NCBI GenBank assembly: GCA_017442855.1
Contig: JAFSPM010000018.1
Span: forward strand, 1 to 64,000
Source of the DNA: Bacteroidaceae bacterium
GTDB taxonomy: Bacteria; Bacteroidota; Bacteroidia; Bacteroidales; Bacteroidaceae
Length of the DNA: 64,000 nucleotides
Reading direction: 5' to 3'
Every line of letters starts with the position of its first letter. The stretch's first letter is position 1. This document shows, piece after piece, positions 5,240 through 26,800 of this stretch. Both the position numbers and the translations under genes were made by a program. Under the pieces are notes generated by a model. The model did not search any database. It saw nothing but the letters and a program-made list of their open reading frames with translations, and had not been told where the DNA came from.

Positions 5240-5259
5240 TACCGTTGTTTTTATGGGCA

Positions 5260-5267
5260 CAAAGGTA
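5260..5267 (-). promoter_or_regulatory. Bacteroidetes -7 element for the PPTase operon
   Basis: On the minus strand this reads TACCTTTG, a match to TAnnTTTG, 21 bp upstream of the PPTase ATG. A good -33 TTTG is not seen. It is back to back with a + strand -7 element 21 bp away. Confidence 0.45.
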
Positions 5268-11751: not shown

Positions 11752-12888
11752 ATGAAAAGAATCGTCGTTGTAAAAGTAAGTTGTAAGCGCGAGATGGATG
11801 ATTTCATCCGTCTGCCCTATGCTATCTATAACAATTGTCCGCAATACGTGCCAGATCTGGAGAGCGACGTCCGCGACATCTTCAATCCCAAGAAAAACCC
11901 CGCCCATAGTTTCTCAATGATTCAACCCTTCGTGGCCTATCGTGACGGAGTGGCTGTAGGGCGCATCGTGGGTATCATCAACCGCAAGGCCAACGAGAAG
12001 TGGCAGCAACAGAACGTTAGGTTTTCCATGATAGAGTTTATCGATGACCTCGAGGTTTCAAAGGCTTTGATAGATGCAGTCAGTCAATGGGGACTGTCGC
12101 AAGGCATGGACACGATACACGGACCGTTAGGCATTACCGACTTTGACAAGGAGGGCATGCTCGTAGAAGATTTCCATTTGATGGGTTCCATGAATACCAT
12201 CTATAATCCGGACTACTACCCTCGCCACATGGAGCAACTGGGATTTGAGAAGGAAGTTGACTGGGTACAAATACGCGTCAGCATCCCCAAGGAAGTGCCA
12301 GTAAAATACACCCGTGTGGCTCAGTATGCTCGCGAGCAGATAGGACTAAGCGTCATGAAGATTACCTTCGTTGATGTTATCAAACGTGGCTATGGCAAGA
12401 AAATCTTTGATCTGCTGAATGAGGCTTACCAGCCTATTTTCGGTTTCACGGAATTCTCCCCTGCTCAGGTGGACATCTTTGTTAACAAGTACCTCCGACT
12501 GATAGACTTACGACTGGTTTCCGTGGTGCTGAATGCGGAACATGAAGTCGTAGGTGTGGCAGTAACAATGAGTAGTTTGTCAAAGGCCATGCAAAAAGCC
12601 AACGGACATCTATGGCCAACGGGCTGGTGGCCTCTACTGAAAGCACTGAAGTGGCAACCGGAAGACAATGCCGAGATGTTATTAGTGGCGGTACGACCCG
12701 ACTACCAAGGATTTGGTGTAAATGCCCTGTTCTTCGACGATCTCATCCCTATCTATAACAAGAAAGGATTCCTATGGGCAGAGACAGGTCCTCAGTTAGA
12801 GGATAACGTGCGGGAACTGACACAGTGGAAACCACTGAATCCGGAATATGTGAAACGCAGAAGATGTTATTGTAAAAGATTGAAGTAA
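11752..12888 (+). CDS. BcerS/YghO-like GNAT-fold acyltransferase
   Basis: A 378-residue protein from ATG 11752 (an upstream ATG at 11737 adds five residues and sits closer to the promoter). It resembles the YghO/BcerS-like group of GNAT-related proteins: an N-terminal segment with FNPKKNPAHSFSM...PFVAYRDGVAVGRIVGIIN, a central GPLGITDFDKEGMLVE, and a C-terminal GNAT core with LLVAVRPDYQGFGVNALFFDDL. Some members of this group make bacterial ceramides by N-acylation; most are uncharacterised. It is the first gene of the cluster and ends 9 bp before the ketosynthase, so an acyl-ACP made by the cluster is a plausible donor. Substrate assignment is inference. Confidence 0.65.
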   Translation: MKRIVVVKVSCKREMDDFIRLPYAIYNNCPQYVPDLESDVRDIFNPKKNPAHSFSMIQPFVAYRDGVAVGRIVGIINRKANEKWQQQNVRFSMIEFIDDLEVSKALIDAVSQWGLSQGMDTIHGPLGITDFDKEGMLVEDFHLMGSMNTIYNPDYYPRHMEQLGFEKEVDWVQIRVSIPKEVPVKYTRVAQYAREQIGLSVMKITFVDVIKRGYGKKIFDLLNEAYQPIFGFTEFSPAQVDIFVNKYLRLIDLRLVSVVLNAEHEVVGVAVTMSSLSKAMQKANGHLWPTGWWPLLKALKWQPEDNAEMLLVAVRPDYQGFGVNALFFDDLIPIYNKKGFLWAETGPQLEDNVRELTQWKPLNPEYVKRRRCYCKRLK

Positions 12889-12897
12889 TAAGAAGAT

Positions 12898-14124
12898 ATG
12901 GAAAGAAGAGTTGTGATAACAGGAATGGGCATCTGGTCGTGTATCGGCACGACACTTGATGAGGTGCGCCAATCATTGTACGAGGGAAAGAGCGGCATCG
13001 TGTTCAGTCAGGAGCGCAAGGATGCAGGATTCCGCTCCCCCATCTGTGCCAATGTTCCTAAACCAGATTTGAAGAAGGTATTGAGCCGCAACGTTCGACA
13101 GATGATGCCCGAAGAGGCACAATATGCCTATATGGCAACGGTACAAGCATTAGAGCAGGCTCAATTAACACAAGATTATATTGATGCCCATGAGGTGGGT
13201 GTCATCTATGGCAACGACTCTGTGGCTGAATCTACCATGGTAGCCATGGATAAGTTCCGTCAGGCTGGTTCAACAGCTGCTTGTGGTTCGGGAGCCATTT
13301 TCCAATCCATGAACTCAACGGTTACGATGAACCTGGCAACATTGTTCCACCTGAAGGGAATCAACCTTACAGCATCAGCAGCCTGCGCCAGTGGATCGCA
13401 GTCGTTGGGACTGGGCTTCCTGCTTATCAAGAACGGTTTGCAGGATTGCATTGTCTGTGGCGGTGCAGAAGAAAATAACATGTACGGCATTGCCTCATTC
13501 GATGCCTTGCAGACCTTCTCTACACGCATCGACGACCCCACCAAAGCCAGTCGCCCGTTCGACCGCGACCGTGACGGACTGGTGCCCAGTGGTGGTGCAG
13601 CTACCGTAATCATCGAGAGCTATGAACATGCTGTCCGCCGTGGCGCACCTATCTTGGCAGAAATTTTGGGCTGGGGATTCTCAGGCAATGGCGACCATAT
13701 CTCTACCCCCAACGTGGAGGGTCCAGCACGTTCACTCGTTCGTTGTCTGGAAAATGCAGGTGTTACACCTCATGACATTGGCTATGTAAATGCCCATGCC
13801 ACCTCTACACCAATCGGTGACAGCCGTGAAGCTGAAGCAATCGCACAAGTGTTTGGTGATTACATGGTACCTGTTACATCGACAAAGAGCCAGACAGGCC
13901 ATGAAATGTGGATGGCAGGAGCATCAGAAATCATTTACTCCATGATGATGATGAAGAACGACTTCATCGCCGGATCTCTGAATTTTGAGCATCCCGATGA
14001 AGTGACACAGTGCATTAACGTCATCCCAGAAACCAAGCAACAGCATTTTGATATGTTCCTGAGCAACTCGTTCGGCTTTGGTGGTACCAATTCGACATTG
14101 ATTGTGAAGAACATTAACCATTAA
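12898..14124 (+). CDS. Beta-ketoacyl-ACP synthase (FabF-like)
   Basis: A 408-residue condensing enzyme with the full KAS II triad: Cys163 in SAACASGSQS, His300 in NAHATSTPIGD and His335 in KSQTGHEMWMAGASE, at FabF-like spacing, plus NSFGFGGTN at the C-terminus. It elongates acyl-ACP by decarboxylative condensation with malonyl-ACP. No chain-length-factor partner lies beside it, unlike many aryl-polyene clusters. Being inside a cluster with its own ACP, dehydratase, reductase and exporter, it is probably a dedicated, not housekeeping, ketosynthase. Confidence 0.9.
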   Translation: MERRVVITGMGIWSCIGTTLDEVRQSLYEGKSGIVFSQERKDAGFRSPICANVPKPDLKKVLSRNVRQMMPEEAQYAYMATVQALEQAQLTQDYIDAHEVGVIYGNDSVAESTMVAMDKFRQAGSTAACGSGAIFQSMNSTVTMNLATLFHLKGINLTASAACASGSQSLGLGFLLIKNGLQDCIVCGGAEENNMYGIASFDALQTFSTRIDDPTKASRPFDRDRDGLVPSGGAATVIIESYEHAVRRGAPILAEILGWGFSGNGDHISTPNVEGPARSLVRCLENAGVTPHDIGYVNAHATSTPIGDSREAEAIAQVFGDYMVPVTSTKSQTGHEMWMAGASEIIYSMMMMKNDFIAGSLNFEHPDEVTQCINVIPETKQQHFDMFLSNSFGFGGTNSTLIVKNINH

Positions 14125-14209
14125 ACTTTGGTCATTGACCATTGAATATTACATAGTCTTAAGATACAATGACGGAGTATAAAAGATTTAACATTAAATA
14201 ATATTGAAA

Positions 14210-14455
14210 ATGAAAACAAGAGAAGAAATTATTGAACAAGTAAACAGTCTGTTGGCAGAAGAGTTTGAAACCGAAGATAGCAACTTCGCACCTGATGCCA
14301 ACCTGAAGGATGCTTTGAACCTTGACAGTATCAACCTGGTAGATTTGATCGCTTTGGTGCAGTACACCTATAAGATCACCATCCCTGTTGAGGATTTGAA
14401 GAATATTCATACCTTCAATGACCTGTATGATTACATTGAGCAGCACCAGAAATAA
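14210..14455 (+). CDS. Acyl carrier protein
   Basis: An acidic 81-residue carrier protein with the phosphopantetheine site in LNLDSINLVDL (Ser40). The frame also contains TTG at 14204, but ATG 14210 (MKTREEIIEQ) is the natural start. Helix II after the DS motif reads INLVDLIALVQ, unlike the DSLDTVELVM of fatty-acid AcpP, which fits a specialised ACP. It sits between the ketosynthase and the dehydratase. Confidence 0.9.
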   Translation: MKTREEIIEQVNSLLAEEFETEDSNFAPDANLKDALNLDSINLVDLIALVQYTYKITIPVEDLKNIHTFNDLYDYIEQHQK

Positions 14456-14483
14456 TAAACATTTAGCTATTTGACTTTAAGTA

Positions 14484-14930
14484 ATGATAAAAGGTGAGGA
14501 CATCAAGCTCCTGATTCCTCAACGAGAACCGTTCATAATGGTTGACGAGTTTGAGGAATGTGACGACAACAGTGCCGGCACAGCGTTAAGTGTATGTCCT
14601 GACAATTATTTTATCTTGCCTGACGGGACAATGGCAGAGACAGGACTTATTGAGCATCTTGCCCAGTCTTGTTCTGCCCTTTCCGGTTATAAGGCATTGA
14701 TGCAGGCTTCTCCCTCGGGAGAGCATCTGGAGGAAGCTCCACCTCCTCCCGTTGGACTGATTGGTGAAGTGAAGCAATTTGAGTGTCATCGTCGTCCACG
14801 GTTGGGTGAGAAACTGAAAAGTAATGTTACATTTGGTTTCTCATTCGGAAATGTAACCCTGGCTACAGGTCAGACTTTTGTGGACGATGAACTGATAGCC
14901 AACATCCAACTGAAGATATTCATGCAATGA
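14484..14930 (+). CDS. Hotdog-fold 3-hydroxyacyl-ACP dehydratase-like protein (FabZ/ApeI-like)
   Basis: A 148-residue protein with the FabZ-type opening KLLIPQREPFIMVDEF and the central helix MAETGLIEHLAQSCSALSGY. In FabZ this helix is preceded by GHFPxxP with the catalytic His; here the place reads FILPDGTMAE and the His is not evident, as in ApeI/ApeP-like dehydratases of polyene clusters. It should dehydrate 3-hydroxyacyl-ACP intermediates, but the altered active site leaves this open. Its last codon overlaps the ATG of the MMPL gene (ATGA). Confidence 0.75.
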   Translation: MIKGEDIKLLIPQREPFIMVDEFEECDDNSAGTALSVCPDNYFILPDGTMAETGLIEHLAQSCSALSGYKALMQASPSGEHLEEAPPPPVGLIGEVKQFECHRRPRLGEKLKSNVTFGFSFGNVTLATGQTFVDDELIANIQLKIFMQ

Positions 14931-17389
14931 CAGGACTGTTTATTCGTCTCTCACGGTATTTCAGCAGTCACAAGGCAGTATGTTGGCTGTCCATGATTGC
15001 CCTCTTCCTGTTCTTCGGCTATTTTGCCATGCAACTACATCTGGAAGAGGACATCAACAAGCTGATGCCCTCGTCAAAGAATGAGGATGGTACCACCAAA
15101 CTGGCTTTTGCCGACCTGAAGATCAAAGACAAGGTTTTTCTGTTGTTTGAGGGCAACGACACGGAGCAACTGACTGAGGTATGCGACGAATTTGTAGATT
15201 CCCTGCTGCAAAATGATAGCGTGAGCCAGACCATTGGCGATATCTTCTATCGGTTGGACGATGACCTGATACCCGATGGTATCGACTATTTGACAGAACA
15301 CCTGCCTGCCTATATTGACACCTCGGTCTATGCACGTTTCGACACCCTGCTCACTCGGGAACACTTTTCCCAACAGATGCAGCAGAACAGAGAGGACCTG
15401 ACGGGCGAATTTGGCGAGATGTTCCCTGAGCTGATACTGATGGACCCGATGGGCATGCGCAACGTACTGGCCGACCAGATGGAGCCTTTATTAAGCGCTG
15501 GCGGCAGCTACAAGACCATCGACAATCATTTCTTTGTTCCCGATTCCACCGTATGCATCGCCTTTATCACCCCTCGTTATTCGGCCACGAACACCGGGCA
15601 GGGGTCAGCGATGTTCCAACTGCTGAATTCCCAGATTGAACAGTTTGCCACTACCCACCCAGCAGTAGAGATAACCTACCACGGCACACCAGCCAGTGGC
15701 TACTATAACTCCACACAGATCAAGCACGACCTTACCACCACCATAGCAGGCGCCCTCCTGCTGGTACTGGTATTCCTGCTGTTCTGCTTCCGTCGTTGGG
15801 ACACCATCCCCCTACTCCTGCTGCCTGTGGTTTTCGGTACCTTATTTGGCCTCTCCATGATGTACTGGCTGAAAGGCGAGTTCTCGCTGTTGGCACTTGG
15901 CATCGGAGGTGTGGTGTTAGGCGTGGCACTTAGCTACGTGCTCCATGTGTTGACCCACCAGCAGTTTGTTGACGACACAGAGCAGTTGCTGAAAGACCAG
16001 GTAAAGCCAGTGTTGTTAGGCTGTCTTACCACCATCGGCTCTTTTGCCGGATTGTTATTTGTCAAGACTGACCTGTTGCGTGACTTCGGATTGTTTGCTG
16101 CCTTTGCTATCTTGGGCACCACGTTGTTCTCACTCACCTACCTGCCACAGTTATTAAGGAAAAAACAAACTTCATCCTTCTTACATCTTACATCTTCCTT
16201 CATCAGCTATCCTTTCGACCAGAAGAAACCCCTGATAGCCGTTATTCTTTTAGTAACGGTGGTCTGTGTTGGTGCCTTTCTGGCAGGTGGCACCCGTTTT
16301 GATGCCGACATGCACAACCTGGGGTATGACCATCCTATGACAGAACACTCTGAGCAGGTACTGCGTGACAAGACCTATACCAACGACAAGTCCAAATACT
16401 TTGCCAGTCAGGGACGCTCGATGGAAGAAGCGATTGAGAACTTTGCCATTCTCGACCACAAGCTCGACTCACTGCAACAGTTGGGACTCGTAAAGAGTTA
16501 CACCAGCACCAACATGATTTTCATTCCACTACAGCAGCAACAAGAGCGCATTGATGCCTGGAAGCAATACTGGACTGACGAACGCCTGGCACAAGTGAGC
16601 CGACTGATAGCTGAAACGGCACCACAGGCAGGTATCAATGCCAATGCTTTCGAGCCCTTCTTTGAAGCAGCTACCCGTGACTACGAGCCAGATGCACTTT
16701 ACGATGCAGGCATAATTCCCGAAGGCTACCAGTCAACACTCACCGAGCAGTCATATGGTGGCGACTACCTTGTCTTTACCTCTGTGCGTTGTGAGAACGA
16801 CTCCGTGCGCAGCAGCGAGAGCGATTATATGCGCATCTGCGATGCCATCGCCAAGGAACCGAACTTGCTTGTGCTTGACACCTATTATTATACCACCGAC
16901 ACGCTGATTGAGATGAGCGAGGACTTTAACTTGCTGCAATGGCTTTCCATGGCTTTTGTCTTGATCGTATTGTGTTTGTCATTCCATTTCAATGCACGTC
17001 ATACGCTGCTGGCCTTTGCACCTATCCTGCTTAGCTGGCTCATTGTATTGGGCGTTATGGTACTCTTCAATGTGCAGTTCAACCTTATCAGCATCATCAT
17101 CTCCACCTTCATCTTCGGTATTGGTGTAGATTATAGCATCTTCATCATGCACGGACTGATAAATGATGACGAGCATATTCATTCCTCTTTCTCTATACTA
17201 CAGTCACACAAGACTGCCATTCTGCTCAGCGCAGTGGTACTCATCACCACCGTTAGCAGCATGCTCATTGCCCAGCACCCTGCCATCCGTAGCGTTGGCT
17301 TCACCACACTCGTTGGCCTGCTTGCTGCGGTCATCCTTTCCTATATCCTGCAACCTGCCATCTACCGTTGGCTTAACAAGCACCAATGA
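14927..17389 (+). CDS. MMPL/RND-family lipid exporter
   Basis: An 820-residue membrane protein with the duplicated MMPL layout: one N-terminal helix (about 15-35), a periplasmic domain (about 40-260), five helices with FSLLALGIGGVVLGVALSYVLHVLTHQQF, a second helix near 440, another periplasmic domain and a final helix block with STFIFGIGVDYSIFIMHGL. These GVxLxYxLH / GVDYSIF motifs are the proton-relay regions of the RND exporters found in aryl-polyene and flexirubin-type clusters. It probably moves the lipid product, or its carrier-released form, across the inner membrane. Both gene ends overlap neighbours by 4 bp. Confidence 0.85.
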   Translation: MTGLFIRLSRYFSSHKAVCWLSMIALFLFFGYFAMQLHLEEDINKLMPSSKNEDGTTKLAFADLKIKDKVFLLFEGNDTEQLTEVCDEFVDSLLQNDSVSQTIGDIFYRLDDDLIPDGIDYLTEHLPAYIDTSVYARFDTLLTREHFSQQMQQNREDLTGEFGEMFPELILMDPMGMRNVLADQMEPLLSAGGSYKTIDNHFFVPDSTVCIAFITPRYSATNTGQGSAMFQLLNSQIEQFATTHPAVEITYHGTPASGYYNSTQIKHDLTTTIAGALLLVLVFLLFCFRRWDTIPLLLLPVVFGTLFGLSMMYWLKGEFSLLALGIGGVVLGVALSYVLHVLTHQQFVDDTEQLLKDQVKPVLLGCLTTIGSFAGLLFVKTDLLRDFGLFAAFAILGTTLFSLTYLPQLLRKKQTSSFLHLTSSFISYPFDQKKPLIAVILLVTVVCVGAFLAGGTRFDADMHNLGYDHPMTEHSEQVLRDKTYTNDKSKYFASQGRSMEEAIENFAILDHKLDSLQQLGLVKSYTSTNMIFIPLQQQQERIDAWKQYWTDERLAQVSRLIAETAPQAGINANAFEPFFEAATRDYEPDALYDAGIIPEGYQSTLTEQSYGGDYLVFTSVRCENDSVRSSESDYMRICDAIAKEPNLLVLDTYYYTTDTLIEMSEDFNLLQWLSMAFVLIVLCLSFHFNARHTLLAFAPILLSWLIVLGVMVLFNVQFNLISIIISTFIFGIGVDYSIFIMHGLINDDEHIHSSFSILQSHKTAILLSAVVLITTVSSMLIAQHPAIRSVGFTTLVGLLAAVILSYILQPAIYRWLNKHQ

Positions 17390-18840
17390 TGAAATATGAT
17401 GTTGTAATCATAGGCAGCGGACTGGGTGGGCTGGTGTGTGGTTCACTATTAGCACGTGAAGGAAAGCGAGTGCTGGTGCTGGAGCGTCAGGCACATCTGG
17501 GAGGTTGTTTGCAAACCTTCCAGCGCGACGGCTTATCATTCGATACCGGCTTCCATTATGTTGGTGGATTGGCAGAGGGACAACCACTGCATAGTGTGTT
17601 CTCATACCTGGGACTGATGCAGCTGCCTTGGATACGCTTGGATGCAGACGGCTTCGACCGTGTGACCATCGGACAGCAGACCTTTCCAATGGCTGAGGGC
17701 TACGACCGTTTTGCCGACACGCTTGGCGAGTATTTCCCATACGAGATAAAGGCGTTGAAGCAGTATGTGGAGATGTTGCGCCACCTTCCACCCATGGAGG
17801 AGATTGGTCACATCTGCGCTTACAACTATTTGCAGTCACTTTTCCACGACCCACTGCTCATCAATGTGCTTTCGGGCTCAGCCATGAAGATGGAGCTACG
17901 AAAGGACTCACTTCCCCTTTTCACCTTTGCCCATGGCATGAGTAGTTATATAGGCAGTAGCTGGCGACTGCGTGGTGGTGGAGAACCAATTGTCCTGTCT
18001 TTGGTAAATAACATAAAGGATTTGGGCGGACAGGTAATCTGTCATGCTGAAGTCAAAGAATTGATTGAGAAGGAAGGGCGTATTGATGCCGTTCGATGTA
18101 CAAATGGCGAGATATACGAGGGTACATCGTTTATCAGCGATGTTCACCCCCAGGAGACATTCAAGTGGCTGGGCGATTCGCACTTAGTGAAAAACACATT
18201 CCGCCGACGTATCAACACCTTGGAAAACAGCTTTGGCATATTCACCGTCTCGCTGGTACTGAAAAAAGGTGCATTGCCTTATTTCAACCATAACAAATAT
18301 GTTTATAGAAAGCCGAATGTTTGGACTTTACTTGAGGAGATGAGTGCCGCCAACGGTGATTGGCAGAAAATGGTCAATGGTTTGATGGTAGCTTGTCGCG
18401 TACCGGAAGAAGGTAACGACGCCCGCCAGATAGACCTGCTCACACCTATGCCCTGGAGTATGTGTAAACCTTGGGAGAACACCACCATAGGGCACCGCGG
18501 TGAAACCTACGAACAGTTGAAAGGCCATGTTGCCGATGAATGTATTCGCTTGGCAGAAACGGTTATACCACAATTAGGCAACATGGTGGAGAAACGCTAT
18601 ACCAGTACACCGCTGACCTACCACGATTATACGCTTACCCCTTGTGGATCGGCCTACGGTGTGCGCAAGGATTATCATAATCCGCTATTGACGATACTGT
18701 CACCACGAACTCCTATCCCTAACCTCCTGCTGACAGGCCAGAGCCTGATGTTGCACGGTGTAGAGGGAGTAACGATGACAGCACTGCATACCTGCAGTGA
18801 ACTATTAGGAAAAAACTTTATACAAGCAGTAATAAAATGA
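17386..18840 (+). CDS. NAD(P)/FAD-dependent oxidoreductase, CrtI/retinol-saturase-like
   Basis: A 484-residue flavoprotein with the N-terminal dinucleotide fold VVIIGSGLGGLVCGSLLAREG and LVLERQAHLGGCLQTF, the FDTGFHYVGG segment of the phytoene desaturase / all-trans-retinol 13,14-reductase family, and a C-terminal NLLLTGQSLMLHGVEGVTMTA. Such enzymes introduce, remove or isomerise double bonds in polyenes. In this cluster, which has no obvious enoyl reductase, it is a candidate to adjust unsaturation of the acyl chain. ATG 17386 and ATG 17389 are both possible; either overlaps the MMPL stop. Confidence 0.82.
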   Translation: MMKYDVVIIGSGLGGLVCGSLLAREGKRVLVLERQAHLGGCLQTFQRDGLSFDTGFHYVGGLAEGQPLHSVFSYLGLMQLPWIRLDADGFDRVTIGQQTFPMAEGYDRFADTLGEYFPYEIKALKQYVEMLRHLPPMEEIGHICAYNYLQSLFHDPLLINVLSGSAMKMELRKDSLPLFTFAHGMSSYIGSSWRLRGGGEPIVLSLVNNIKDLGGQVICHAEVKELIEKEGRIDAVRCTNGEIYEGTSFISDVHPQETFKWLGDSHLVKNTFRRRINTLENSFGIFTVSLVLKKGALPYFNHNKYVYRKPNVWTLLEEMSAANGDWQKMVNGLMVACRVPEEGNDARQIDLLTPMPWSMCKPWENTTIGHRGETYEQLKGHVADECIRLAETVIPQLGNMVEKRYTSTPLTYHDYTLTPCGSAYGVRKDYHNPLLTILSPRTPIPNLLLTGQSLMLHGVEGVTMTALHTCSELLGKNFIQAVIK

Positions 18841-19556
18841 AATATGCATTAGTAACAGGTGGCAGCCGCGGCATTGGCAGAGCCATCACAGTAAAACTGG
18901 CCCAAGAGGGTTATCAGGTGATTATCAACTATACCAGCAATCAGACCGAGGCTGAGAAGACGCTTGCATCTATCAACGGTCAAGGCGAATTGCTGCCTTT
19001 TGATGTCAGTGATAACCAGCAAGTACGACAGGCGTTGGACGACTGGCAACAGCGCCACCCCGATGATTATATCGAAGTGATTGTGAACAATGCCGGCATC
19101 CGTCGCGACAATGTATTGGCTTTGATGCCAGAGGCCGACTGGCACCGTGTGCTTGACATCACGTTGTCTGGTTTCTTCAACGTCACCCAGCCCCTGTTGC
19201 CGGCCATGCAGATGCATAAGTTCGGACGAATTGTCAACATGGCCAGCGTCAGCGGTCTGAAAGGCTTGCCCGGCCAGACCAACTATTCCGCTGCCAAAGG
19301 AGGCGTCATTGCTGCTACCAAGGCGTTGGCACAAGAGGTGGCACGCAGGGGCATCACCGTTAATGCCGTTGCTCCGGGCTTTATCAAGACCGATATGACC
19401 GAAGGACTGGACGAGGCCTCACTGAAGAAGCTGATACCGGCCAATCGCTTCGGCACCCCAGAGGAAGTGGCCGACCTTGTGGCATTTCTTGTTTCACCAC
19501 AGGCAGGCTATATCACTGGCAATGTTATTTCAATTAATGGAGGAATGTACACATGA
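18837..19556 (+). CDS. 3-oxoacyl-ACP reductase (FabG-like SDR)
   Basis: A 239-residue classical short-chain dehydrogenase: TGGSRGIGRAI for NADPH binding, NNAG, the catalytic Ser/Tyr/Lys set in NMASVSGLKGLPGQTNYSAAKGG, and INGG near the end. It reduces 3-oxoacyl-ACP to 3-hydroxyacyl-ACP. Coupled by 4-bp overlaps to the flavoprotein upstream and the LolA-like gene downstream, it is the ketoreductase of this cluster. Confidence 0.88.
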   Translation: MKYALVTGGSRGIGRAITVKLAQEGYQVIINYTSNQTEAEKTLASINGQGELLPFDVSDNQQVRQALDDWQQRHPDDYIEVIVNNAGIRRDNVLALMPEADWHRVLDITLSGFFNVTQPLLPAMQMHKFGRIVNMASVSGLKGLPGQTNYSAAKGGVIAATKALAQEVARRGITVNAVAPGFIKTDMTEGLDEASLKKLIPANRFGTPEEVADLVAFLVSPQAGYITGNVISINGGMYT

Positions 19557-20053
19557 AACATCTTACAGCTTTATTGTTTATGGTATTCACATTGTGTTGT
19601 GGTACCATGGGTGCACAAAATGTGACACGCACCCGTCATCAAGCCGCGCTGACCACCGATGCTGTCACTACAGGCACGCTGACCATTCGCAAGCCCGATT
19701 ATATCTGCATCTCTACCGATGGTGGTCGCGACCAGTTGCTCATGGACGGTACCAAGTTTACGATGACAATGGGAGGCAAGCTGCATGAAACCAACAGTCA
19801 GCAGAATCCCCAGTTCGACACTTTCCAGAAGGTGCTGCATGCCGTCATCAACGCCCAGCCCATCCCTGAGTGCGAGGACTTGACCGTAGAGACCAAGAAC
19901 GGACAGCGTACCATTACCATTACGCCATCCACCAAGAAAAAACGTCAGATGTTCACGTCTTTCGTGTTGGTAATTGACGAAAAGACATCAGCTTTCCGTC
20001 AGTTGCGCATGAACGAACGGGCTGACAACTATATCAACTACGACTTTAAATAA
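19553..20053 (+). CDS. LolA-like periplasmic carrier protein
   Basis: A 166-residue protein with a signal peptide (MKHLTALLFMVFTLCCGTMGAQ) and the flat beta-sheet pattern of LolA-like outer membrane lipoprotein carriers (GTLTIRKPDYICIST..., FTMTMGGKL, LVIDEKTSAFRQLRMNE). Paralogous LolA-like proteins accompany MMPL exporters in aryl-polyene clusters and are thought to ferry the hydrophobic product through the periplasm. The 4-bp overlap with the ketoreductase supports membership in this operon. Confidence 0.75.
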   Translation: MKHLTALLFMVFTLCCGTMGAQNVTRTRHQAALTTDAVTTGTLTIRKPDYICISTDGGRDQLLMDGTKFTMTMGGKLHETNSQQNPQFDTFQKVLHAVINAQPIPECEDLTVETKNGQRTITITPSTKKKRQMFTSFVLVIDEKTSAFRQLRMNERADNYINYDFK

Positions 20054-20085
20054 CGCACCCCTGCGAAGCGTGCTTATTTGAAGAG

Positions 20086-20667
20086 ATGAAGAAGGTTTTG
20101 TTCCTACATGGGTTCTATGCCAGTGGCCAGTGTGTACCTGCCCTGGCATTGCGCGAGGCCTTCGTGGGGCGTGCAGAGGTACTGACGCCCGACCTGCCCA
20201 TGCATCCCAAGCAAGCCGTCAGCTTCATCCGTAAGCTGTGCACCAACGAGCAACCCGATGTAATAGTAGGCAACAGTTGTGGCTCGTTCTTAGCGCAGAT
20301 GATAGCCCCTACCCTTGGCATCCCTGCCCTCTTGGGCAATCCCCATTTCCAGATGACAACCTTCCTGCAAACACGCATCGGTGCTCACCAGTACAAATCG
20401 CCCCGCCAGGACAGTCACCAGGACTTTATCATCGACGAGGCCTTGATACAAGAGTTTGCTGAGCTCGAAGCCATTCAGTTCGACCATTGCACCCCCTTTG
20501 GCAAAGAACATACCTGGGGCCTCTTTGGCGAGCAAGACACCCTCGCCCACTTCGAGCCCCTCTTTCTCGAGCACTACACCCACTCTTTCCATTTCCCTGG
20601 CAATCACACCCCCACCGCCGATGAGGTCCGCATCTATTACGTCCCGTTGGTGGAGCAGCTATGGTAA
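20086..20667 (+). CDS. YqiA-like alpha/beta-hydrolase (esterase/thioesterase candidate)
   Basis: A 193-residue cytoplasmic hydrolase of the YqiA/YcfP type: LFLHGFYASGQ (oxyanion region), VIVGNSCGSFLAQ (nucleophile Ser), LFGEQDTLAHFE (Asp) and FPGNHTPTADE (His). The family has esterase activity on short acyl esters. It begins 32 bp after the LolA-like gene and is probably the last enzyme of the cluster; release of an acyl chain from ACP or CoA would fit but is inference. Confidence 0.72.
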   Translation: MKKVLFLHGFYASGQCVPALALREAFVGRAEVLTPDLPMHPKQAVSFIRKLCTNEQPDVIVGNSCGSFLAQMIAPTLGIPALLGNPHFQMTTFLQTRIGAHQYKSPRQDSHQDFIIDEALIQEFAELEAIQFDHCTPFGKEHTWGLFGEQDTLAHFEPLFLEHYTHSFHFPGNHTPTADEVRIYYVPLVEQLW

Positions 20668-20687
20668 CAAGTCAACAGTCAACAACT

Positions 20688-21794
20688 ATGAGAAACGCCC
20701 TGATCATCCTATACCTAATATGCATATCATGCATGCCACTGTATGCACAGTCCCTCCCCGACTCCATTGTCTCAGGCCCTTTCCCAACGGGACACATACA
20801 AGGCTTTGCCATTGACTCACGCCACCAGTATGTCTATTATTCCTATACCACCATGTTGGTTAAATCCGACATGCAAGGCCATGTCATAGGCACCGTAAAA
20901 GGTCTTCTTGGTCATTTAGGTTGTCTGGACTTCAATGAGGCAGATGGTCGTGTTTATGGATCATTGGAATACAAGAACGACGCCATTGGGAAGGGAATCC
21001 TGCAGATGGAGCAAACCGACCGTACCCTTGACAATGCTTTCTACATTGCCATTTTCGATGTAGAGCGAATCGACCGTATGGACATGGATGCTGAACGTGA
21101 CGGCATTATGACCACCGTCTATCTCCCCACCGTATTAGACGATTACCTGGCACATGTTACCATAGGAACAGAAATCAAGGAACATCGTTTCGGATGCAGT
21201 GGCATTGACGGTGTTAGCTTCGGTCCGATGTTTGGCAAGCAGGATGGGAAACAATACCTGACAGTAGCCTACGGTATCTACGGAGAGACCGACCGCCCTG
21301 ACAACGATTATCAGGTACTTCTACAATATGACATCGCTAAATGGAAAGCCTTTGAGCATCCGCTCTCGCAAGACCATTTGCATCGTCAGGGTCCCCGGAA
21401 ACCCAATGGTCGCTACTTTGTTTGGACAGGGAACACCACCTATGGGGTACAGAACCTGGAGTATGATGCCCATAGCCACACCTGGTATATGGCCGTCTAT
21501 AAAGGACAGAAAACAACGTTCCCAAATTATTCCCTCTTTGCTATTGACGGCACTTCGCGACCAGTATCCCAGTCACTAAAGGGCATTCCATATTTGAAAC
21601 GTGGTAAGGTTATTCCCCTTAAGCAAGAAGGACTGAAAGATTCCTCTACAGGCATCCGAGGTTGGAACTTCCCCTATGGCAGTACTGGCATCTGTGCTTT
21701 AGGTGACGGACAATTCTATATTTCAAAAAACTATCAGACACCCCAAGGGCAAGGTGCTGTATTACGTCTTTACCGTCTCTTCCCTCAAGAATGA
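20688..21794 (+). CDS. Secreted beta-propeller-like protein of unknown function
   Basis: The frame opens at 20661, inside the hydrolase gene, but ATG 20688 gives a clean signal peptide (MRNALIILYLICISCMPLYAQ), so a 368-residue exported protein is likely. It has repeated strand-turn segments (IQGFAIDSRHQYVYYSYTTML, LGCLDFNEADGRVYGS, NTTYGVQNLEYDAHSHTWYMAVY, ISKNYQ) that suggest a propeller, but no named domain that I recognise. It lies at the end of the lipid cluster and 56 bp before the CRISPR array; involvement in either is not supported beyond position. Confidence 0.6.
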   Translation: MRNALIILYLICISCMPLYAQSLPDSIVSGPFPTGHIQGFAIDSRHQYVYYSYTTMLVKSDMQGHVIGTVKGLLGHLGCLDFNEADGRVYGSLEYKNDAIGKGILQMEQTDRTLDNAFYIAIFDVERIDRMDMDAERDGIMTTVYLPTVLDDYLAHVTIGTEIKEHRFGCSGIDGVSFGPMFGKQDGKQYLTVAYGIYGETDRPDNDYQVLLQYDIAKWKAFEHPLSQDHLHRQGPRKPNGRYFVWTGNTTYGVQNLEYDAHSHTWYMAVYKGQKTTFPNYSLFAIDGTSRPVSQSLKGIPYLKRGKVIPLKQEGLKDSSTGIRGWNFPYGSTGICALGDGQFYISKNYQTPQGQGAVLRLYRLFPQE

Positions 21795-21850: not shown

Positions 21851-22542
21851 GTTGTTTGTCATCTTTTCCTAAATCAAACCACAACCTAACGAACCAATCT
21901 AACGATGGAAAAGATGTTGTATACCATTCATTTCCTACATCAAACCACAACTTTAGGTGTTTTCTTTTACTTATTCTTTTCGTTGTATACCATTCATTTC
22001 CTACATCAAACCACAACGTCCGAAGTTCTCAGCACACGCAACGGCTGGGTTGTATATCATTCTTTTCCTACATCAAGCCACAACCGAAGCGCAACGAAGC
22101 AAATTGCTTGAACGTTGTATATCATTCTTTTCCTACATCAAGCCACAACTGTTGGGGATGTGCTTTTGCATGTCGTTTCGTTGTATATCATTCTTTTCCT
22201 ACATCAAGCCACAACCCTTATCTGATTCTCGGAAAATTCCGTTTGTTGTATATCATTCTTTTCCTACATCAAGCCACAACGTTAATATGCAGACAGCAGC
22301 CACCAGCAAGTTGTATATCATTCTTTTCCTACATCAAGCCACAACTACTCTTTTACCAACCCTAACTTACACGGGGTTGTATATCATTCTTTTCCTACAT
22401 CAAGCCACAACTGTTGCATTATTTTGGTGTGTTTGCTAAAGTTGTATATCATTCTTTTCCTACATCAAGCCACAACACAAACAGGGCACTTTCCTCCATC
22501 GGTACTGTTGTATATCATTCTTTTCCTACATCAAGCCACAAC
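21851..22542 (-). CRISPR. Type II-C CRISPR array, 11 repeats and 10 spacers
   Basis: Eleven 36-bp repeats (the first 35 bp and degenerate) start at 21851, 21916, 21982, 22049, 22114, 22180, 22245, 22310, 22376, 22441 and 22507. Spacers are 29-31 bp. Eight repeats (22049 onward) are identical and begin GTTGTATATC on the + strand; those at 21916 and 21982 share three differences, and that at 21851 is more diverged. Diverged repeats mark the leader-distal end, so the leader is at 22543-22634 beside cas2 and the array is read on the minus strand, where the repeat starts GTTGTGGCTTGATGTAGG. The tracrRNA at 27545-27627 pairs with that orientation. Confidence 0.96.
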
Positions 22543-22634
22543 CTAGGTGTAATATTTCCTTATTTTACAGCATGATACACCATATTTACTATCCTAAGAA
22601 GTGGCTCTTAATGTAGTATTTCTTCCCAAAACTA
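22543..22634 (-). promoter_or_regulatory. CRISPR leader
   Basis: This AT-rich 92-bp stretch separates the newest repeat from the cas2 stop codon. The minus strand carries TAGTTTTG (22634-22627), a TAnnTTTG-type -7 element about 85 nt from the first repeat; no clear -33 was found. It may drive the array independently of the cas operon. Confidence 0.5.
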
Positions 22635-22973
22635 TTAAAAAAATTCTAATTGAAGGGGCTCTGTCGGTACTTTTTTCTGTTTCTTACCCCATATATTTAC
22701 AATATCGCTATATTGTTTATCTGTTACACTTAAAATACTAACCATTCCCGTTTCTGGCACAAAAGCTTTTACCCGTTTCACATGTACTGCTTGGCTTTCA
22801 TAAGATGCACAATGTCTAATATATACGGAAAACTGCAACATAACAAAACCGTCTTTCATCAGATTCTTCCGAAAAAGCGCTGCTACTTTCCGTTCTTTCT
22901 TAGTTACCACTGGCAAATCAAAGAAAACAAACAGCCACATAATATGATAAGCATTTAACCGGTTTTCGCTCAT
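22635..22973 (-). CDS. cas2: CRISPR-associated endonuclease Cas2
   Basis: A 112-residue Cas2 with the opening strand WLFVFFDLPVVTKKERK (acidic Asp after FF) and the ferredoxin-like body ending in ILSVTDKQYSD. With Cas1 it forms the spacer-integration complex. Its ATG overlaps the cas1 stop by 4 bp, and the stop is next to the leader. No csn2 or cas4 follows, which makes the system subtype II-C. Confidence 0.94.
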   Translation of the reverse strand: MSENRLNAYHIMWLFVFFDLPVVTKKERKVAALFRKNLMKDGFVMLQFSVYIRHCASYESQAVHVKRVKAFVPETGMVSILSVTDKQYSDIVNIWGKKQKKVPTEPLQLEFF

Positions 22974-23857
22974 GTTACCATTGGTAAAGACAACCTGTCT
23001 GTTTCTCCCTTAAACACTTTGAGTAATGAAGCCGTAGTAAGTGACAAAGCATTTTCTAATGGCCGTGTTACCCTACCCATTTTCACATCCGAGAACAAAA
23101 CTCTCAATAACTTTCCTTTAGTTTGATTGTCCAACTCATTAATAGCACCATCATAAAACAGGTGGTAAACTATTTCGTCAACGAACGGCCTGTATGGCTC
23201 CATTACATCATCAGCTAAAGGGAAAGCATTATAACGATTGCGATGAAATACGCCAAAAGCAGGATATAATCCAGAACCTACCAAGGCTCGAGCCACAGCT
23301 GCTCGTAATATGGTATAGCCATAATTCAAAAGATTATTGGGAGGTAATCCATTATGATCTCGTTTGAATCCATCTTCAAATAATTGCCCCCAGTATTCTC
23401 TTGCAGCGGCCCCTTCTCGATTATCAGAATCTCCAGATTTAACATTCATATAATACTGCTTCAGAACATCTCCATTTTTACCCTCTTTATTAAGTAAAAG
23501 AGACTGGTTTCTAATTTTACTCTCAACCAATTGTTTCCATATATTCTTTTTGGTAGGAGCAGAAGCATCTATCTGATACTTATAACTCTCTTGCAAAGTA
23601 GTATTCCCCTCTAAAGTCATCAACATAGTCTTTGGCATTTTCTTGCTATCACAGAAAATAACTGATACATTATTATCTGCTAACTCATTGAGTACAGGTA
23701 CAGAAATGCTTACTTGAGGATGCTCAATAACCACAAAACCTATATCCTCAATGGGACGAGTCACCGAATCATCATTGTCCTTAAAAGTTATTACCAGCTG
23801 ATGGTTCTTCAAAGACAAATAAACTGGTGAGGTTATCATTAATGACTGCTTAATCAT
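22970..23857 (-). CDS. cas1: CRISPR-associated integrase Cas1
   Basis: A 295-residue type II Cas1. The metal-binding triad is visible as Glu148 (REGAAAREYW), His205 (GVFHRN) and Asp216/217 (LADDVMEPYRP), at the usual family positions. It inserts new spacers at the leader end of the array. It overlaps cas9 and cas2 by 4 bp on either side, so the three are translationally coupled. Confidence 0.95.
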   Translation of the reverse strand: MIKQSLMITSPVYLSLKNHQLVITFKDNDDSVTRPIEDIGFVVIEHPQVSISVPVLNELADNNVSVIFCDSKKMPKTMLMTLEGNTTLQESYKYQIDASAPTKKNIWKQLVESKIRNQSLLLNKEGKNGDVLKQYYMNVKSGDSDNREGAAAREYWGQLFEDGFKRDHNGLPPNNLLNYGYTILRAAVARALVGSGLYPAFGVFHRNRYNAFPLADDVMEPYRPFVDEIVYHLFYDGAINELDNQTKGKLLRVLFSDVKMGRVTRPLENALSLTTASLLKVFKGETDRLSLPMVT

Positions 23858-26800
23858 ATCAACCTCCTTATCTCGCCTAAATCATTTATCTCAAAATCAA
23901 CGCCTTGAACAAGAGCATTGATTTGAGTGTGTAGCATCTTTATTCCAGATCGGAAATCCTCGTTTGTTTTAAACTCACCATTTATCTTCTTGATTTCTGT
24001 ACTTGGACGGGCATCTTGATGATAAACCATTTCTATCGTACCAAAATCATACTTCCCTTGAATAACCATCGATGACATACCAGTTATTTTATACAATCTC
24101 TTAAGCATGTCTTTTCTTTCCAACTCCCATACCTCTTCTGGGTTATTCTCGTAAAGAAGCACCATAGTACCTATCTTCAGCTTATATCGAAGCTCAAAGC
24201 CGCTCTTACTATAATATGGCACCAACTCTTGCTCATTATTATTACTACGACGATACAAATAAGCTGCCTCTATGTTATTAACAAGCTCGAACTCCCTCTT
24301 TTCTTTTCCTTTCTTGTCCTTTCCAACATAGATTGCCATCATATAGTTGCGATCATTCTGGACATGATACTGTCTTTTATACTCATGCTTAGAAACATCC
24401 CTTTGTTCACGAATATTAATTGGACGGGTTACAGAACCAGCGAAAACACGCACTTTCTTAATTGGAATCTGTTTCTCCTCATTCATCCAGATTGTTTTTC
24501 CTAAAGCCTTCTTCAGCGAGCCATGAAGCAGAATAGCATTCTCAACCTTAGAGCGCACCTCCCCATCAACAATATTCTTCACATCTTTTTCATCTAACCC
24601 ATCAAGGTTTTTACGTACCACATATTTAACAACTCCGTCTACTTCAATAGCGCCATAATAGGTATCATTGTGCAAAGAAGCACGAGCTGTATCACCTTGA
24701 GTTAATACTTTTGCTCCCTTGCTATTTCTGACATACCGTTTGGCTTGCTTCGGCATATTGTCTTTGTTATAATGAGCTATCAGCAGTTCGTCTTGAATCT
24801 GTTTTATGTCACTCACAAATGAAGGCCACGGCATATCAAACCTTGGTTTATCTTTGCCAAAGTACTTGTATTCGTCATATTTATGACGATATTCAGCTAA
24901 TTTGTCATATTCACCCTTATCTATACATGCAATCGTTATGGCATCAACGCAATGGTGAACATGGTTCACTCGTTCTTTCTTTGTATATTCTTCCTGGATG
25001 CCCCACATTTGTCTGAATTCAGAAGTAGCAATACCTTTGACAATATATACCTGTTTGAACACTGACTTCAGATACATACGAGCATAGCGTGAAATAACAC
25101 TAATATCTGTTCCTTGACGTCTTGAGAAACCTTCAGGAACCTCTTTCATGGTAAAGCGTTGATACTTGCCACGCCAGTAATCCCTTTGTAACGATAAAAA
25201 ATGCTTAGTCCTAATAATTCTATCTTTTTCTTCTTTAGAAGAGCCACGACTGCCTTTCAGATTTCTGATTCGTTTATCTAACACTTCGTAATTATCTTTC
25301 CAGCTCTTTATTCTCTCCAGTATTTCATCATGATTAGGGAGCTGGGAAGGTAGTTTGGTTCGTTTAATATCACGATTATATCGAATACTACAAAGTGTCA
25401 AATTCATCTTGGTACTATCTCCACCTGCACTGCGAGGAATGGTATGTTCAATATCATACAGTGGATTCTCACCTAAAAATTGCTCAACGCCTATTTCTTC
25501 ACCTGTATATAAACACTTGTGATTCTGCTCTTCCCACAGTTGATATTTCAAGATGTCAGTATCAGAGGGGTTAGCAATATGTTCTTCGATTGCTTTCCGG
25601 CATCTGTCTCTATCTTTTTCATTATCTCGTTGCCAAGCCTGGATAGCCCAACGGCGATTTGCATCATTCAAATCTCGAGAGAACTCAATATGGATTTTAG
25701 TGTCAGGTGTAATCATCCGCTTTTTCAACAACAGATTAACGACTTTACGTAACCTAAACAAGGAATGCATGGCCATAGGATTCTTCACATTATTTATGCG
25801 AGGAGACCCTAACTGATAAAGACCATCTTCATTAGGACGCTGACGAGGATAAAGTTCTATCATAGAAGGATGATACAATTTCTTTAACTCATCTTCTTTG
25901 ACATTGTATCTTTCCATCAAGAATACTTTGACACATTGTTCTAATGTCACACCATCAATATTGCTCTTATCATAAGAATGCATAACTCCTATCACATTAT
26001 CTATGATAGCTTCACGCATTTCTTTAATACTCCATTCATATTTGGGCATTATTTCCACCAAATTACCCAAGAACACTGCTTCTGGGTATATCAGGCCATA
26101 GTCTCTCAAATAAGGTAATATCTTACGAATGGCTTTCAGACTTAGAGCATCATAATCATTAGGCAAAGAAATCTTGCTAAACTTATCTGCTTGTTCCTCA
26201 TCTAATTGTAAACGATTGATGGCAAACTGTTTTAATTTCTCATCATCATCGTAGAAGAACAATGCATGCCACACATCATTCATAATTTCGAAACGAGTCT
26301 TGTTTTTGGCCAAGGTATATACCTCACACACACTACATAACCAATCTTCACCGAAGATTTCTTCTAACTGGGCATTGACAGGGCTGCTTGAAACTGGCGT
26401 ATCCAACTGGTAATTAAACTTGTATGGTTTGTCCTCGTCACTCTTTATATAACAATAGTTATTCTTACCTGCCAGCTTCTTCGCAATATCTTCAAACGGG
26501 AATGTTTTCTTTGACTTGCGCTTAAACAAAGGTATGACCTGTTTCTTCTCTTCGTCTGTTAAAGACCTTTCAGTATTCTCATAAAGAGTATTGACGTTTA
26601 CCCTAATGTTATTCAGAAAGCTATACATGCGAAAATCTTCATACAAGGGATGTGAAGATGGGCAACGAGGTTTGCCTTTCTCAAATGTGCAAGTTCCGAC
26701 TTGGCCCTTCTGTGACTTTAATGGTCGTTGGTCAAATATTGCTTTTTCCAGCTTAGATACTAAAGCTTCATCAAGATTCTGTTTAGCACAAATAGCATGA

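What the first reader, a model, noticed from the sequence alone, without database searches (positions are those of the whole stretch)
11752..20667. Stripped-down fatty-acid/polyene-type cluster with exporter and LolA-like carrier
Nine co-directional genes, six of them joined by 4-bp overlaps, encode a BcerS/YghO-like acyltransferase, one ketosynthase, an ACP, a hotdog dehydratase, an MMPL exporter, a CrtI-like flavoprotein, a ketoreductase, a LolA-like protein and an esterase. The KAS/ACP/DH/KR/MMPL/LolA set is that of aryl-polyene and flexirubin clusters, but there is no chain-length factor, aryl starter ligase or ammonia lyase here. The product may be a non-aryl polyene or a special acyl chain handed to an N-acyltransferase and delivered to the outer membrane. 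Family identities are from motifs; the product is inference.
Basis: partly seen in the sequence, partly recalled or inferred. Interest (0 to 1): 0.75.

Follow-up and report, generated by a model that had tools for sequence, protein, structure and literature searches.

The report
Pigment-type genes beside ceramide synthase copy
Gut and rumen Prevotella and Bacteroides carry a conserved gene set, apparently cut down from the aryl-polyene pigment pathway, in which a second copy of the likely ceramide-making enzyme sits next to one chain-building enzyme, which suggests a special ceramide-like lipid for the outer membrane.

Summary
The operon is real and much conserved: 80 related loci were kept (Prevotella, Paraprevotella, Bacteroides, Phocaeicola), and in 70 of the 71 with enough flank the KS has both the acyltransferase NAT and the ACP. 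Gene order is NAT-KS-ACP-(DH)-(HD2)-MMPL-CrtI-(KR)-LolA, often followed by a DUF5686 barrel. The esterase is not conserved. The KS is ApeR-like and nests, via single-KS clusters with a PlsC-type acyltransferase, among the ApeR-type KSs of full aryl-polyene clusters. No KS-CLF pair, APE-type aromatic lyase or FlxJ methyltransferase was found in this 80%-complete genome. NAT belongs to the YghO/bacterial ceramide-synthase family and is a Bacteroidales paralog of a copy found elsewhere in 57 of 60 genus genomes. In the phylum sample, all four other genomes with a serine palmitoyltransferase above its curated cut-off have an NAT-family gene directly beside it. Best explanation (0.5): KS/ACP build a special acyl chain, NAT puts it on a sphingoid base, and MMPL/LolA move the lipid outward. 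"Polyene" is doubtful here: the DH lacks the FabZ-type His and its ApeI-like partner, and 16 relatives have lost both DH and KR. No chemistry is known. New variant of a known kind.

The parts
11752..12888 (+). NAT: YghO/bCerS-family N-acyltransferase, in-cluster paralog (378 aa)
   Evidence: 26% identity end to end to E. coli BL21 YghO (E=1e-32; profile probability 99.9); clade of cluster NATs 100/100, joined to the Bacteroidales housekeeping copies at 100/98
12898..14124 (+). KS: ApeR/FabB-like ketosynthase with the residues of an active enzyme (Cys163, His of NAHATS, Lys of STKS, His of TGHE)
   Evidence: 35% to E. coli CFT073 ApeR over 408 aligned residues against 32% to ApeO over 266; motifs; tree
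14210..14455 (+). ACP with the LDSI phosphopantetheine site (a TTG start at 14204 is possible)
   Evidence: PF00550; 32% to ApeF; motif
14484..14930 (+). DH: ApeP-like hotdog protein without the FabZ GHFP histidine; its ApeI-like partner (HD2) is absent
   Evidence: profile match to ApeP, probability 94; alignment; GHFP absent
14927..17389 (+). MMPL/RND exporter, ApeM- and HpnN-like
   Evidence: PF03176; 20% to ApeM, E=1e-10; HpnN model E=3e-28, below cut-off; solved relative HpnN 6wu0, E=1e-5
17386..18840 (+). CrtI/CrtD-like FAD oxidoreductase
   Evidence: TIGR02733 E=6e-32 and TIGR02734 E=1e-21, both below cut-off; solved relatives PF1083 and phytoene dehydrogenase
18837..19556 (+). KR: FlxB/ApeQ-like ketoreductase
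   Evidence: NF053542 FlxB 397.6 bits, cut-off 340; 46% to ApeQ
19553..20053 (+). LolA-like periplasmic lipid carrier
   Evidence: PF03548 at its cut-off; LolA2_flexi E=5e-13, below cut-off; no blastp match to ApeL at E<=0.01
20086..20667 (+). YqiA-like esterase: neighbour, not a conserved member
   Evidence: PF05728 above cut-off; NF008291 E=5e-11, below cut-off; next to LolA only in L033
11690..11697 (+). possible Bacteroidota promoter -7 element TATTTTTG, about 55 bp upstream of NAT (consensus recalled, weak)
   Evidence: pattern hit

Best explanation
The cluster is a cut-down aryl-polyene-type acyl-chain builder re-plumbed to a ceramide-synthase paralog. The ApeR-like KS and its own ACP make a dedicated acyl chain. 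KR, DH and the CrtI-like flavoprotein tailor it; some of that work may be left to the housekeeping fatty-acid enzymes. NAT moves the chain from the ACP to the amine of a sphingoid base, most simply 3-ketosphinganine made by the SPT encoded elsewhere in the genome. The resulting ceramide-like lipid crosses the inner membrane through the MMPL pump and the periplasm on the LolA-like carrier, reaching the outer membrane; many relatives encode a DUF5686-type barrel next door. Shown: co-conservation, family memberships, descent of KS and NAT, no CLF or aromatic lyase found, catalytic motifs of KS/ACP/KR present. Inferred: acyl-ACP as donor, sphingoid base as acceptor, direction of transport, chain structure.
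For: NAT and ACP accompany the KS in 70 of 71 loci with enough flank; CrtI in 68, MMPL in 66, LolA in 66. Among 60 genus genomes, KS of at least 76% identity occurs in 13, and an NAT of at least 59% lies within about 200 bp in 12; the 13th, G010, is cut by a contig start. No genome of the 60 has the in-cluster NAT without the KS. A second, 45-49% identical NAT lies elsewhere in all 57 genomes that have any NAT; in 7 of the 8 loci fetched it shows beside ParE- and CoaD-like genes (by eye; in L138 the gene caller hid it). In four genomes (G032, G015, G045, G040) both copies lie 4.5-25 kb apart on one contig, as after a local duplication. NAT aligns end to end with YghO, which lies beside a fatty acyl-AMP ligase, a reductase, an ACP and spt in E. 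coli BL21 and is listed with Caulobacter CC_1154 as the N-acyltransferase of ceramide synthesis (PMC9386255 passages). In the phylum sample five genomes exceed the curated SPT cut-off: the window's own and G353, G256, G287, G345, and in these four an NAT-family gene is directly beside SPT. In L147 (G287) that gene, 45% identical to the housekeeping copy, stands between SPT and a CerR-like epimerase. At the looser E<=1e-120 an NAT-family gene is within 1 kb of the SPT-like gene in 59 of 88 genomes transcribed. Own SPT: 670.6 bits, cut-off 640. KS tree: full clusters outside, PlsC clusters inside, NAT clusters innermost. The pump matches the hopanoid transporter HpnN. A CDP-alcohol phosphotransferase and/or an LPG-synthase-like gene, kinds that PMC9246714 (section 10) links to inositol-sphingolipid loci, lies in the fetched flanks in 19 of 80 loci.
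Against: No lipid from such a cluster is known. The housekeeping NAT of the genus is not next to SPT, and several genomes of the phylum sample hold two NAT types, of which the SPT-adjacent one is the YghO-closer type (L152/L153, L155/L154); so the window's type need not act on sphingoid bases throughout. In the 148-genome phylum sample 33 genomes have an NAT-family gene but no SPT-like gene at E<=1e-120, against 107 with both, 1 with SPT only and 7 with neither; that SPT cut-off is loose: only 5 of 148 exceed the curated one and the control Bacillus subtilis also passes it. Inositol-type CDP-alcohol transferase does not track the short cluster: 3 of 12 genomes with it, 18 of 48 without; the 19 loci with such neighbours fall in a few arrangements and the window is not one of them. 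SPT-like genes occur nearly throughout the genus, so their co-presence proves little. L164 (73% KS) has DH, MMPL, CrtI and KR but no recognised acyltransferase, and L084 is a lone KS. MMPL and LolA hits are both missing in L095, L104 and L105, MMPL in L107, LolA in L063. The CrtI-like step has no assigned role.
Confidence: 0.5

Rival explanations
1. The NAT acylates another amine (an amino acid, an amino-sugar lipid or a phospholipid head group), giving a special N-acyl lipid that is not a sphingolipid; the rest of the pathway works as above.
For: The cluster NAT clade sits on a long stem (0.72 changes per column), as expected if its substrate changed. NATs of the window's type are often not beside SPT, and 33 of 148 phylum genomes have the family without an SPT-like gene at E<=1e-120. 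Relatives have an aminotransferase (12 of 80 loci) and a CDP-alcohol transferase (18 of 80) nearby.
Against: The closest outgroup is the housekeeping copy of a family tied to SPT by neighbourhood; motif columns such as GP and EGMLxE are kept across both copies.
Confidence: 0.25
2. It is a degenerating aryl-polyene/flexirubin cluster still making a short (aryl or non-aryl) polyene pigment that is amidated by NAT.
For: KS, KR and DH match ApeR, ApeQ and ApeP, and KR and (weakly) LolA match flexirubin models. [quoted passage not shown] Bacteroides-type members keep both hotdog proteins.
Against: No CLF, APE-type aromatic lyase or FlxJ methyltransferase found in the genome. The window DH has no GHFP His and no HD2 partner; HD2 is in 8 of 71 loci; 16 loci with NAT lack both DH and KR. 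The ApeR Tyr135 equivalent is Ile here, but also Ile or Val in the full Bacteroides clusters aligned, so this test does not decide.
Confidence: 0.15
3. The cluster only extends or reshapes ordinary fatty acids (for example one extra KS round giving 3-keto or 3-hydroxy chains) for bulk lipids or lipid A, and NAT is a bystander.
For: The KS is FabB-like, and the only other PF00109 protein found in the genome is FabF-like; KR and DH can be dispensed with.
Against: NAT is one of the two most constant partners and stands first in the operon, next to the KS; pump and carrier genes are co-conserved.
Confidence: 0.1

Closest known systems
Aryl-polyene (APE) clusters of E. coli CFT073 / Xenorhabdus / Acinetobacter, and flexirubin clusters
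   Same: ApeR-like KS, ApeQ-like KR, ApeP-like DH, ACP, ApeM-like MMPL pump; LolA-like carrier and FlxB-type KR by family models
   Different: No KS-CLF pair ApeO/ApeC found in the genome; the operon has no counterpart of ApeH, ApeI, ApeK, ApeD/ApeJ or ApeB; an N-acyltransferase and a CrtI-like enzyme instead
Full APE-type clusters of Bacteroidales found here (e.g. L114, L119, L173, L174)
   Same: KS 55-63% identical, KR, ACP, DH, usually LolA and MMPL
   Different: They add an aromatic amino acid lyase, usually two further KS-like genes, and often a FlxJ methyltransferase and LpxL-like acyltransferase; no NAT was found in them
Single-KS PlsC-type clusters of Bacteroidales found here (L117, L127, L166, L167, L169, L170)
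   Same: One KS and no further KS-like gene in the stretch, with MMPL-CrtI and a KR and/or LolA-like gene
   Different: A PlsC/lysophospholipid-type acyltransferase stands where NAT stands
Bacterial ceramide synthase (bCerS CC_1154 / YghO)
   Same: End-to-end homology, same length, family neighbours of SPT and CerR-like genes
   Different: This copy is a long-stem paralog in a chain-building operon, not beside SPT

Membership tests
Aryl-polyene biosynthetic cluster | KS-chain length factor pair (ApeO-ApeC) | tested here: not met
   Own genome: two PF00109 proteins, FabF-like and this one, and no PF13723; assembly 80% complete. In 8 of 12 genomes with KS and NAT, two of them 99% complete, the KS search finds nothing beyond these two
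Aryl-polyene biosynthetic cluster | Aryl starter supply: aromatic lyase | tested here: not met
   No match at E<=1e-20 in the own genome; 80% complete
Aryl-polyene biosynthetic cluster | Aryl starter supply: ApeH-type ligase | tested here: inconclusive
   None among the cluster ORFs; not searched for elsewhere in the genome
Aryl-polyene biosynthetic cluster | ApeR/ApeQ/ApeP/ACP/MMPL-type parts | tested here: met
   ApeR 35%, ApeQ 46%, ApeP profile probability 94, ApeF 32%, ApeM 20%; no blastp match of the window LolA to ApeL
Aryl-polyene biosynthetic cluster | Aryl polyene product | not testable with these tools
   Needs chemistry
YghO/bCerS ceramide synthase family | Full-length homology to YghO | tested here: met
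   26%, E=1e-32; profile 99.9
YghO/bCerS ceramide synthase family | Genomic link of the family to SPT in this phylum | tested here: met
   4 of the 5 genomes over the curated SPT cut-off (all but the window's own); 59 of 88 at the looser cut-off, 20 of 108 genomes not transcribed. The window's NAT and its housekeeping copy are not beside SPT
YghO/bCerS ceramide synthase family | Ceramide-forming activity | not testable with these tools
   Needs enzyme assay or lipidomics
Alternative inositol-sphingolipid locus (PMC9246714) | NTP transferase + CDP-alcohol transferase + HAD near the cluster | tested here: not met
   The own-genome CDP-alcohol transferase is on contig C11, not in the window. In L104 and L107 all three lie in the fetched locus

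The most novel reading that the evidence does not exclude
A polyketide-type chain builder descended from the aryl-polyene pathway supplies a private N-acyl chain, unsaturated or oxidised by the CrtI-like enzyme, to a second ceramide synthase. This would make a new class of bacterial sphingolipid exported to the outer membrane, spread across rumen and gut Prevotella and Bacteroides and lying within reach of host cells.
Probability: 0.3. Interest if true: 0.85.

Novelty: new variant of a known kind. Interest (0 to 1): 0.6.

Why it matters
Sphingolipids of gut Bacteroidetes are reported to act on host immunity and metabolism (title and start of abstract of PMC7235224 in the listing, of PMC10865984). 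To my knowledge (recalled) their N-acyl chains are taken to come from the common fatty-acid pool. A dedicated chain builder tied to a ceramide-synthase paralog would be a second route to ceramides and would explain one kind of single-KS 'aryl-polyene-like' cluster in these genomes. It also gives a candidate for the unidentified transport of bacterial sphingolipids (PMC11087976 passages: no flippase or transporter identified yet): an MMPL pump with a LolA-like carrier. The reading can be tested by one deletion and a lipid profile.

Tried and rejected
Esterase (20086-20667) and the 377-aa ORF after it as members: rejected. In the tblastn (loci L033-L132) the esterase lies next to LolA only in L033, and the 377-aa protein gave no match at E<=1e-3.

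Missing APE parts elsewhere in the genome: not found as far as an 80% assembly allows. Relatives: 8 of 12 genomes with KS and NAT show no further APE-type KS; FlxJ is over its cut-off in 3 of the 12, all with extra KS genes, and two more have a sub-threshold hit.

ApeR Tyr135 as a marker of an aryl starter: no use; Ile here, and Ile or Val in the full Bacteroides clusters aligned.

Alternative inositol-lipid cluster as an obligatory partner: rejected; 3 of 12 genomes with the short cluster against 18 of 48 without.

A solved structure close to NAT by sequence: none (best E=0.28).

Ceramide synthase of Bacteroides in print: the bCerS paper (PMC8891067) is not held. Searches gave no paper and one search gave one (PMC9386255, passages). 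PMC10865984 (section 6) reports CerS homologs in P. copri without locus names in that section; PMC8791184 has no occurrence of 'ceramide synthase'. Novelty: searches. One search listed one paper (PMC7486370), which I did not open. In one search one paper, PMC9864124, holds all three terms, with 'ceramide' only in its reference list. I saw none that links an aryl-polyene-like cluster to ceramide synthesis; this covers the held library only.

In one search, 9 of 80 loci were left out for short flanks; L084 (lone KS) is counted as a miss. Presence means a best blastp hit at E<=1e-3 somewhere in the locus (KR at 60% or more). In one search, 89 SPT places (88 of 108 genomes) were typed in, and of the NAT places only part; for the typed SPT genomes whose NAT place was not typed I checked the listed place by eye and it lies on another contig or over 60 kb away. 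The NAT list was capped, so adjacency can be undercounted. Of 14 order-level loci fetched, NAT occurs in 1 (L163), PlsC in 4, the lyase in 5 (L172-L176) and none of these in 4 (L164, L165, L168, L171). Trees used 44 and 47 chosen rows; roots are midpoints and the KS outgroups have very long branches, so the order full, then PlsC, then NAT rests partly on nesting; the 32-row clade also holds L164, L165, L168 and L171.


Full report
WHAT IS THERE. The window lies on a 144-kb contig of a 2.76-Mb, 80%-complete assembly. The nearest named relative by KS is an uncultured Prevotellaceae bacterium, isolate RUG828 (98%; that RUG names are rumen genomes is recalled). Nine co-directional ORFs run from 11752 to 20667. 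Four 4-bp overlaps join DH, MMPL, CrtI, KR and LolA. NAT, KS and ACP precede them with gaps of 9, 85 and 28 bp. The esterase follows LolA after 32 bp.

FAMILIES. Pfam and NCBIfam give ketoacyl-synthase, ACP, MMPL, a CrtI/CrtD-like FAD oxidoreductase, a KR above the FlxB (flexirubin) cut-off, and LolA at its cut-off. DH matches FabZ only weakly (E=3e-5), and NAT matches GNAT just under threshold. Against the E. coli CFT073 aryl-polyene cluster (gene names from PMC8253772 passages) the window proteins match ApeR (35%), ApeQ (46%), ApeP (26% over 73 residues; profile probability 94), ApeF (32%) and ApeM (20%); the window LolA gave no blastp match to ApeL at E<=0.01. The KS keeps Cys, His, Lys and His motifs, the ACP its LDSI serine, and the KR its YxxxK. 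The DH has no GHFP histidine. The hotdog protein that has it in relatives, HD2 (aligned with ApeI; weak ApeI-like Pfam hit below its cut-off), is not in the window. That ApeI and ApeP work as a pair is recalled, not tested here.

CONSERVATION. Of the 71 with at least 1.3 kb upstream and 6.5 kb downstream, NAT is present in 70, ACP in 70, CrtI in 68, MMPL in 66, LolA in 66, DH in 54, KR (at least 60% identical) in 43, HD2 in 8 and TE in 6. The one miss for NAT and ACP is L084, a lone KS. Of the 17 loci with neither DH nor KR, 16 have NAT. An AraC-type regulator occurs in 43 of 80 loci, usually upstream of NAT, and a DUF5686/CarboxypepD_reg barrel in 46 of 80, usually downstream of LolA. The window and its near twin L033 show neither. 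The esterase stands next to LolA only in L033.

SHORT, FULL AND IN-BETWEEN CLUSTERS. Among 60 genus genomes, KS of at least 76% identity occurs in 13. Another group has a 55-59% identical KS, usually with two further KS-like genes within about 8 kb. Those read in detail hold a PF00221 aromatic lyase, a FlxJ methyltransferase, an LpxL-like acyltransferase and further KS genes (L114; L173, L174). A lyase of at least 69% identity occurs in 15 of 60 genomes. Of the 12 genomes with KS plus NAT, four (G012, G015, G040, G041) also have further APE-type KS genes and eight do not, among them two that are 99% complete. FlxJ exceeds its cut-off in 3 of these 12, all three among the four with extra KS genes. 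Six loci show a third kind: one KS, no further KS-like gene in the stretch, and a PlsC-type acyltransferase where NAT stands (L117, L127, L166, L167, L169, L170). In the KS tree the full clusters branch outside; the PlsC clusters fall inside a 32-row clade (100/99) together with four loci of other make-up; and the KSs of NAT clusters (plus lone L084) form a 22-row clade (100/99) within it, with L164, which has no recognised acyltransferase, as sister. With the caveat of long outgroup branches, the simplest history is: full aryl-polyene cluster, loss of the KS-CLF and aryl supply, swap of PlsC for NAT, then loss of HD2, TE and in places KR and DH in Prevotella.

WHAT NAT IS. NAT aligns with E. 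coli BL21 YghO from end to end (26%, E=1e-32; profile probability 99.9). In BL21, yghO sits beside a fatty acyl-AMP ligase, an epimerase-type reductase, an ACP and spt. PMC9386255 (passages) lists yghO with Caulobacter CC_1154 as the N-acyltransferase of ceramide synthesis. In 60 genus genomes, 57 have a 45-49% identical copy elsewhere; the three without are 71-79% complete. Twelve, the window's included, have the in-cluster copy as well, each within about 200 bp of the KS. In G032, G015, G045 and G040 the two copies lie 4.5, 6, 8 and 25 kb apart on one contig, which fits a local duplication.

NAT AND SPT. In a 148-genome phylum sample, 107 genomes have both an SPT-like gene (NF047600, E<=1e-120) and an NAT-family gene (E<=1e-10), 33 NAT only, 1 SPT only and 7 neither. 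The SPT cut-off is loose: only five genomes exceed the curated score, and the control Bacillus subtilis passes the loose one. Of those five, all but the window's own have an NAT-family gene directly beside SPT (G353, G256, G287, G345), and in all four an epimerase follows (L147-L150; the epimerase checked by Pfam in L148 only). At the loose cut-off 59 of 88 genomes transcribed have the neighbours within 1 kb. Most SPT-adjacent members read are of a second type closer to YghO, and G289 and G301 hold both types. The link for the window's own type rests on L147 (between SPT and the epimerase, 45% identical to the housekeeping copy) and, more weakly, on L156 (near an SPT-like alpha-oxoamine synthase). 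In the NAT tree the cluster copies form a clade (100/100, 21 rows) joined to the Bacteroidales housekeeping copies (100/98). So NAT is a paralog of a probable ceramide synthase. That it still uses a sphingoid base is inference.

HOW IT LIKELY WORKS. ApeR enzymes are FabB-like homodimers that make short products, up to four double bonds, in vitro (PMC8358021, part 1 of 4 and passages). In E. coli the apeR deletion still made the final APE lipid (PMC8253772 passages), so ApeR is the auxiliary KS of the full pathway. A lone ApeR-like KS with its own ACP would make a short, dedicated chain or lengthen a fatty acyl chain by a few rounds. KR is present here; DH lacks its His and its partner; and 16 related clusters lack both, so housekeeping FabG/FabZ may stand in, or the chain may stay 3-oxo or 3-hydroxy. 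The CrtI-like flavoprotein, present in 68 of 71, could desaturate, isomerise or oxidise the chain; its role is not known. NAT would transfer the chain to an amine. The MMPL pump, related to the hopanoid transporter HpnN, and the LolA-like carrier would move the lipid to the outer membrane. SPT is encoded about 80 kb away on the same contig (670.6 bits, cut-off 640). In the 60 genus genomes, 11 of the 12 with the short cluster have an SPT-like hit of over 260 bits; G045 (76% complete) has only a 178-bit relative.

NEIGHBOURS THAT POINT TO SPHINGOLIPIDS, AND THEIR LIMITS. In 19 of 80 loci a CDP-alcohol phosphotransferase and/or an LPG-synthase-like protein lies in the fetched flanks; L104 and L107 also have the NTP transferase and HAD protein. 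PMC9246714 (section 10 read) proposes such a set as an alternative inositol-sphingolipid locus, with an LPG-synthase-like and a carboxypeptidase-regulatory-like gene nearby. Yet a related CDP-alcohol transferase is present in only 3 of 12 genomes with the short cluster and 18 of 48 without, so this is not a fixed partnership.

VERDICT. A conserved pairing of an aryl-polyene-derived chain builder with a ceramide-synthase paralog. The parts are known kinds; the combination is a new variant. I searched the held library only and saw no paper there that describes it. The product is unproven.

Noticed in passing
window 21913-27459: Type II-like CRISPR-Cas: ten repeat copies of about 66-bp spacing, with Cas2-, Cas1- and Cas9-like ORFs on the minus strand (identities by eye). 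The first two repeats are diverged.
   Followed up: partly
window 20661-21794: 377-aa secreted-looking ORF overlapping the esterase by 7 bp; no Pfam or NCBIfam match and no tblastn match in the related loci.
   Followed up: partly
window 4679-5260 (-): 4'-phosphopantetheinyl transferase (PF01648) about 6.5 kb upstream of the cluster; in L093 a relative lies just upstream of the cluster's regulator. It could activate the cluster ACP.
   Followed up: partly
L084:10001-11221: A short-type KS (81%) standing alone with none of its partners: moved gene, remnant or assembly fault.
   Followed up: no
L064, L070-L075, L077, L079, L085, L093, L110: HisC/CobD-like aminotransferase near a CDP-alcohol phosphotransferase downstream of the cluster; may mark an unusual lipid head group.
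   Followed up: no
L117, L127, L166, L167, L169, L170: Single-KS clusters that carry a PlsC-type acyltransferase instead of NAT, in four families of the order: a sister kind that may put the chain on a glycerolipid.
   Followed up: partly
L152/L153 and L155/L154 (G289, G301): Genomes holding two NAT-family types, one beside an SPT-like gene and one elsewhere: the function of the second type is unknown.
   Followed up: partly
G032:C47, G015:C9, G045:C3, G040:C30; also L062: The in-cluster NAT and a second NAT copy lie 4.5-25 kb apart on one contig; in L062 a 39% copy lies about 8 kb upstream on the other strand.
   Followed up: partly
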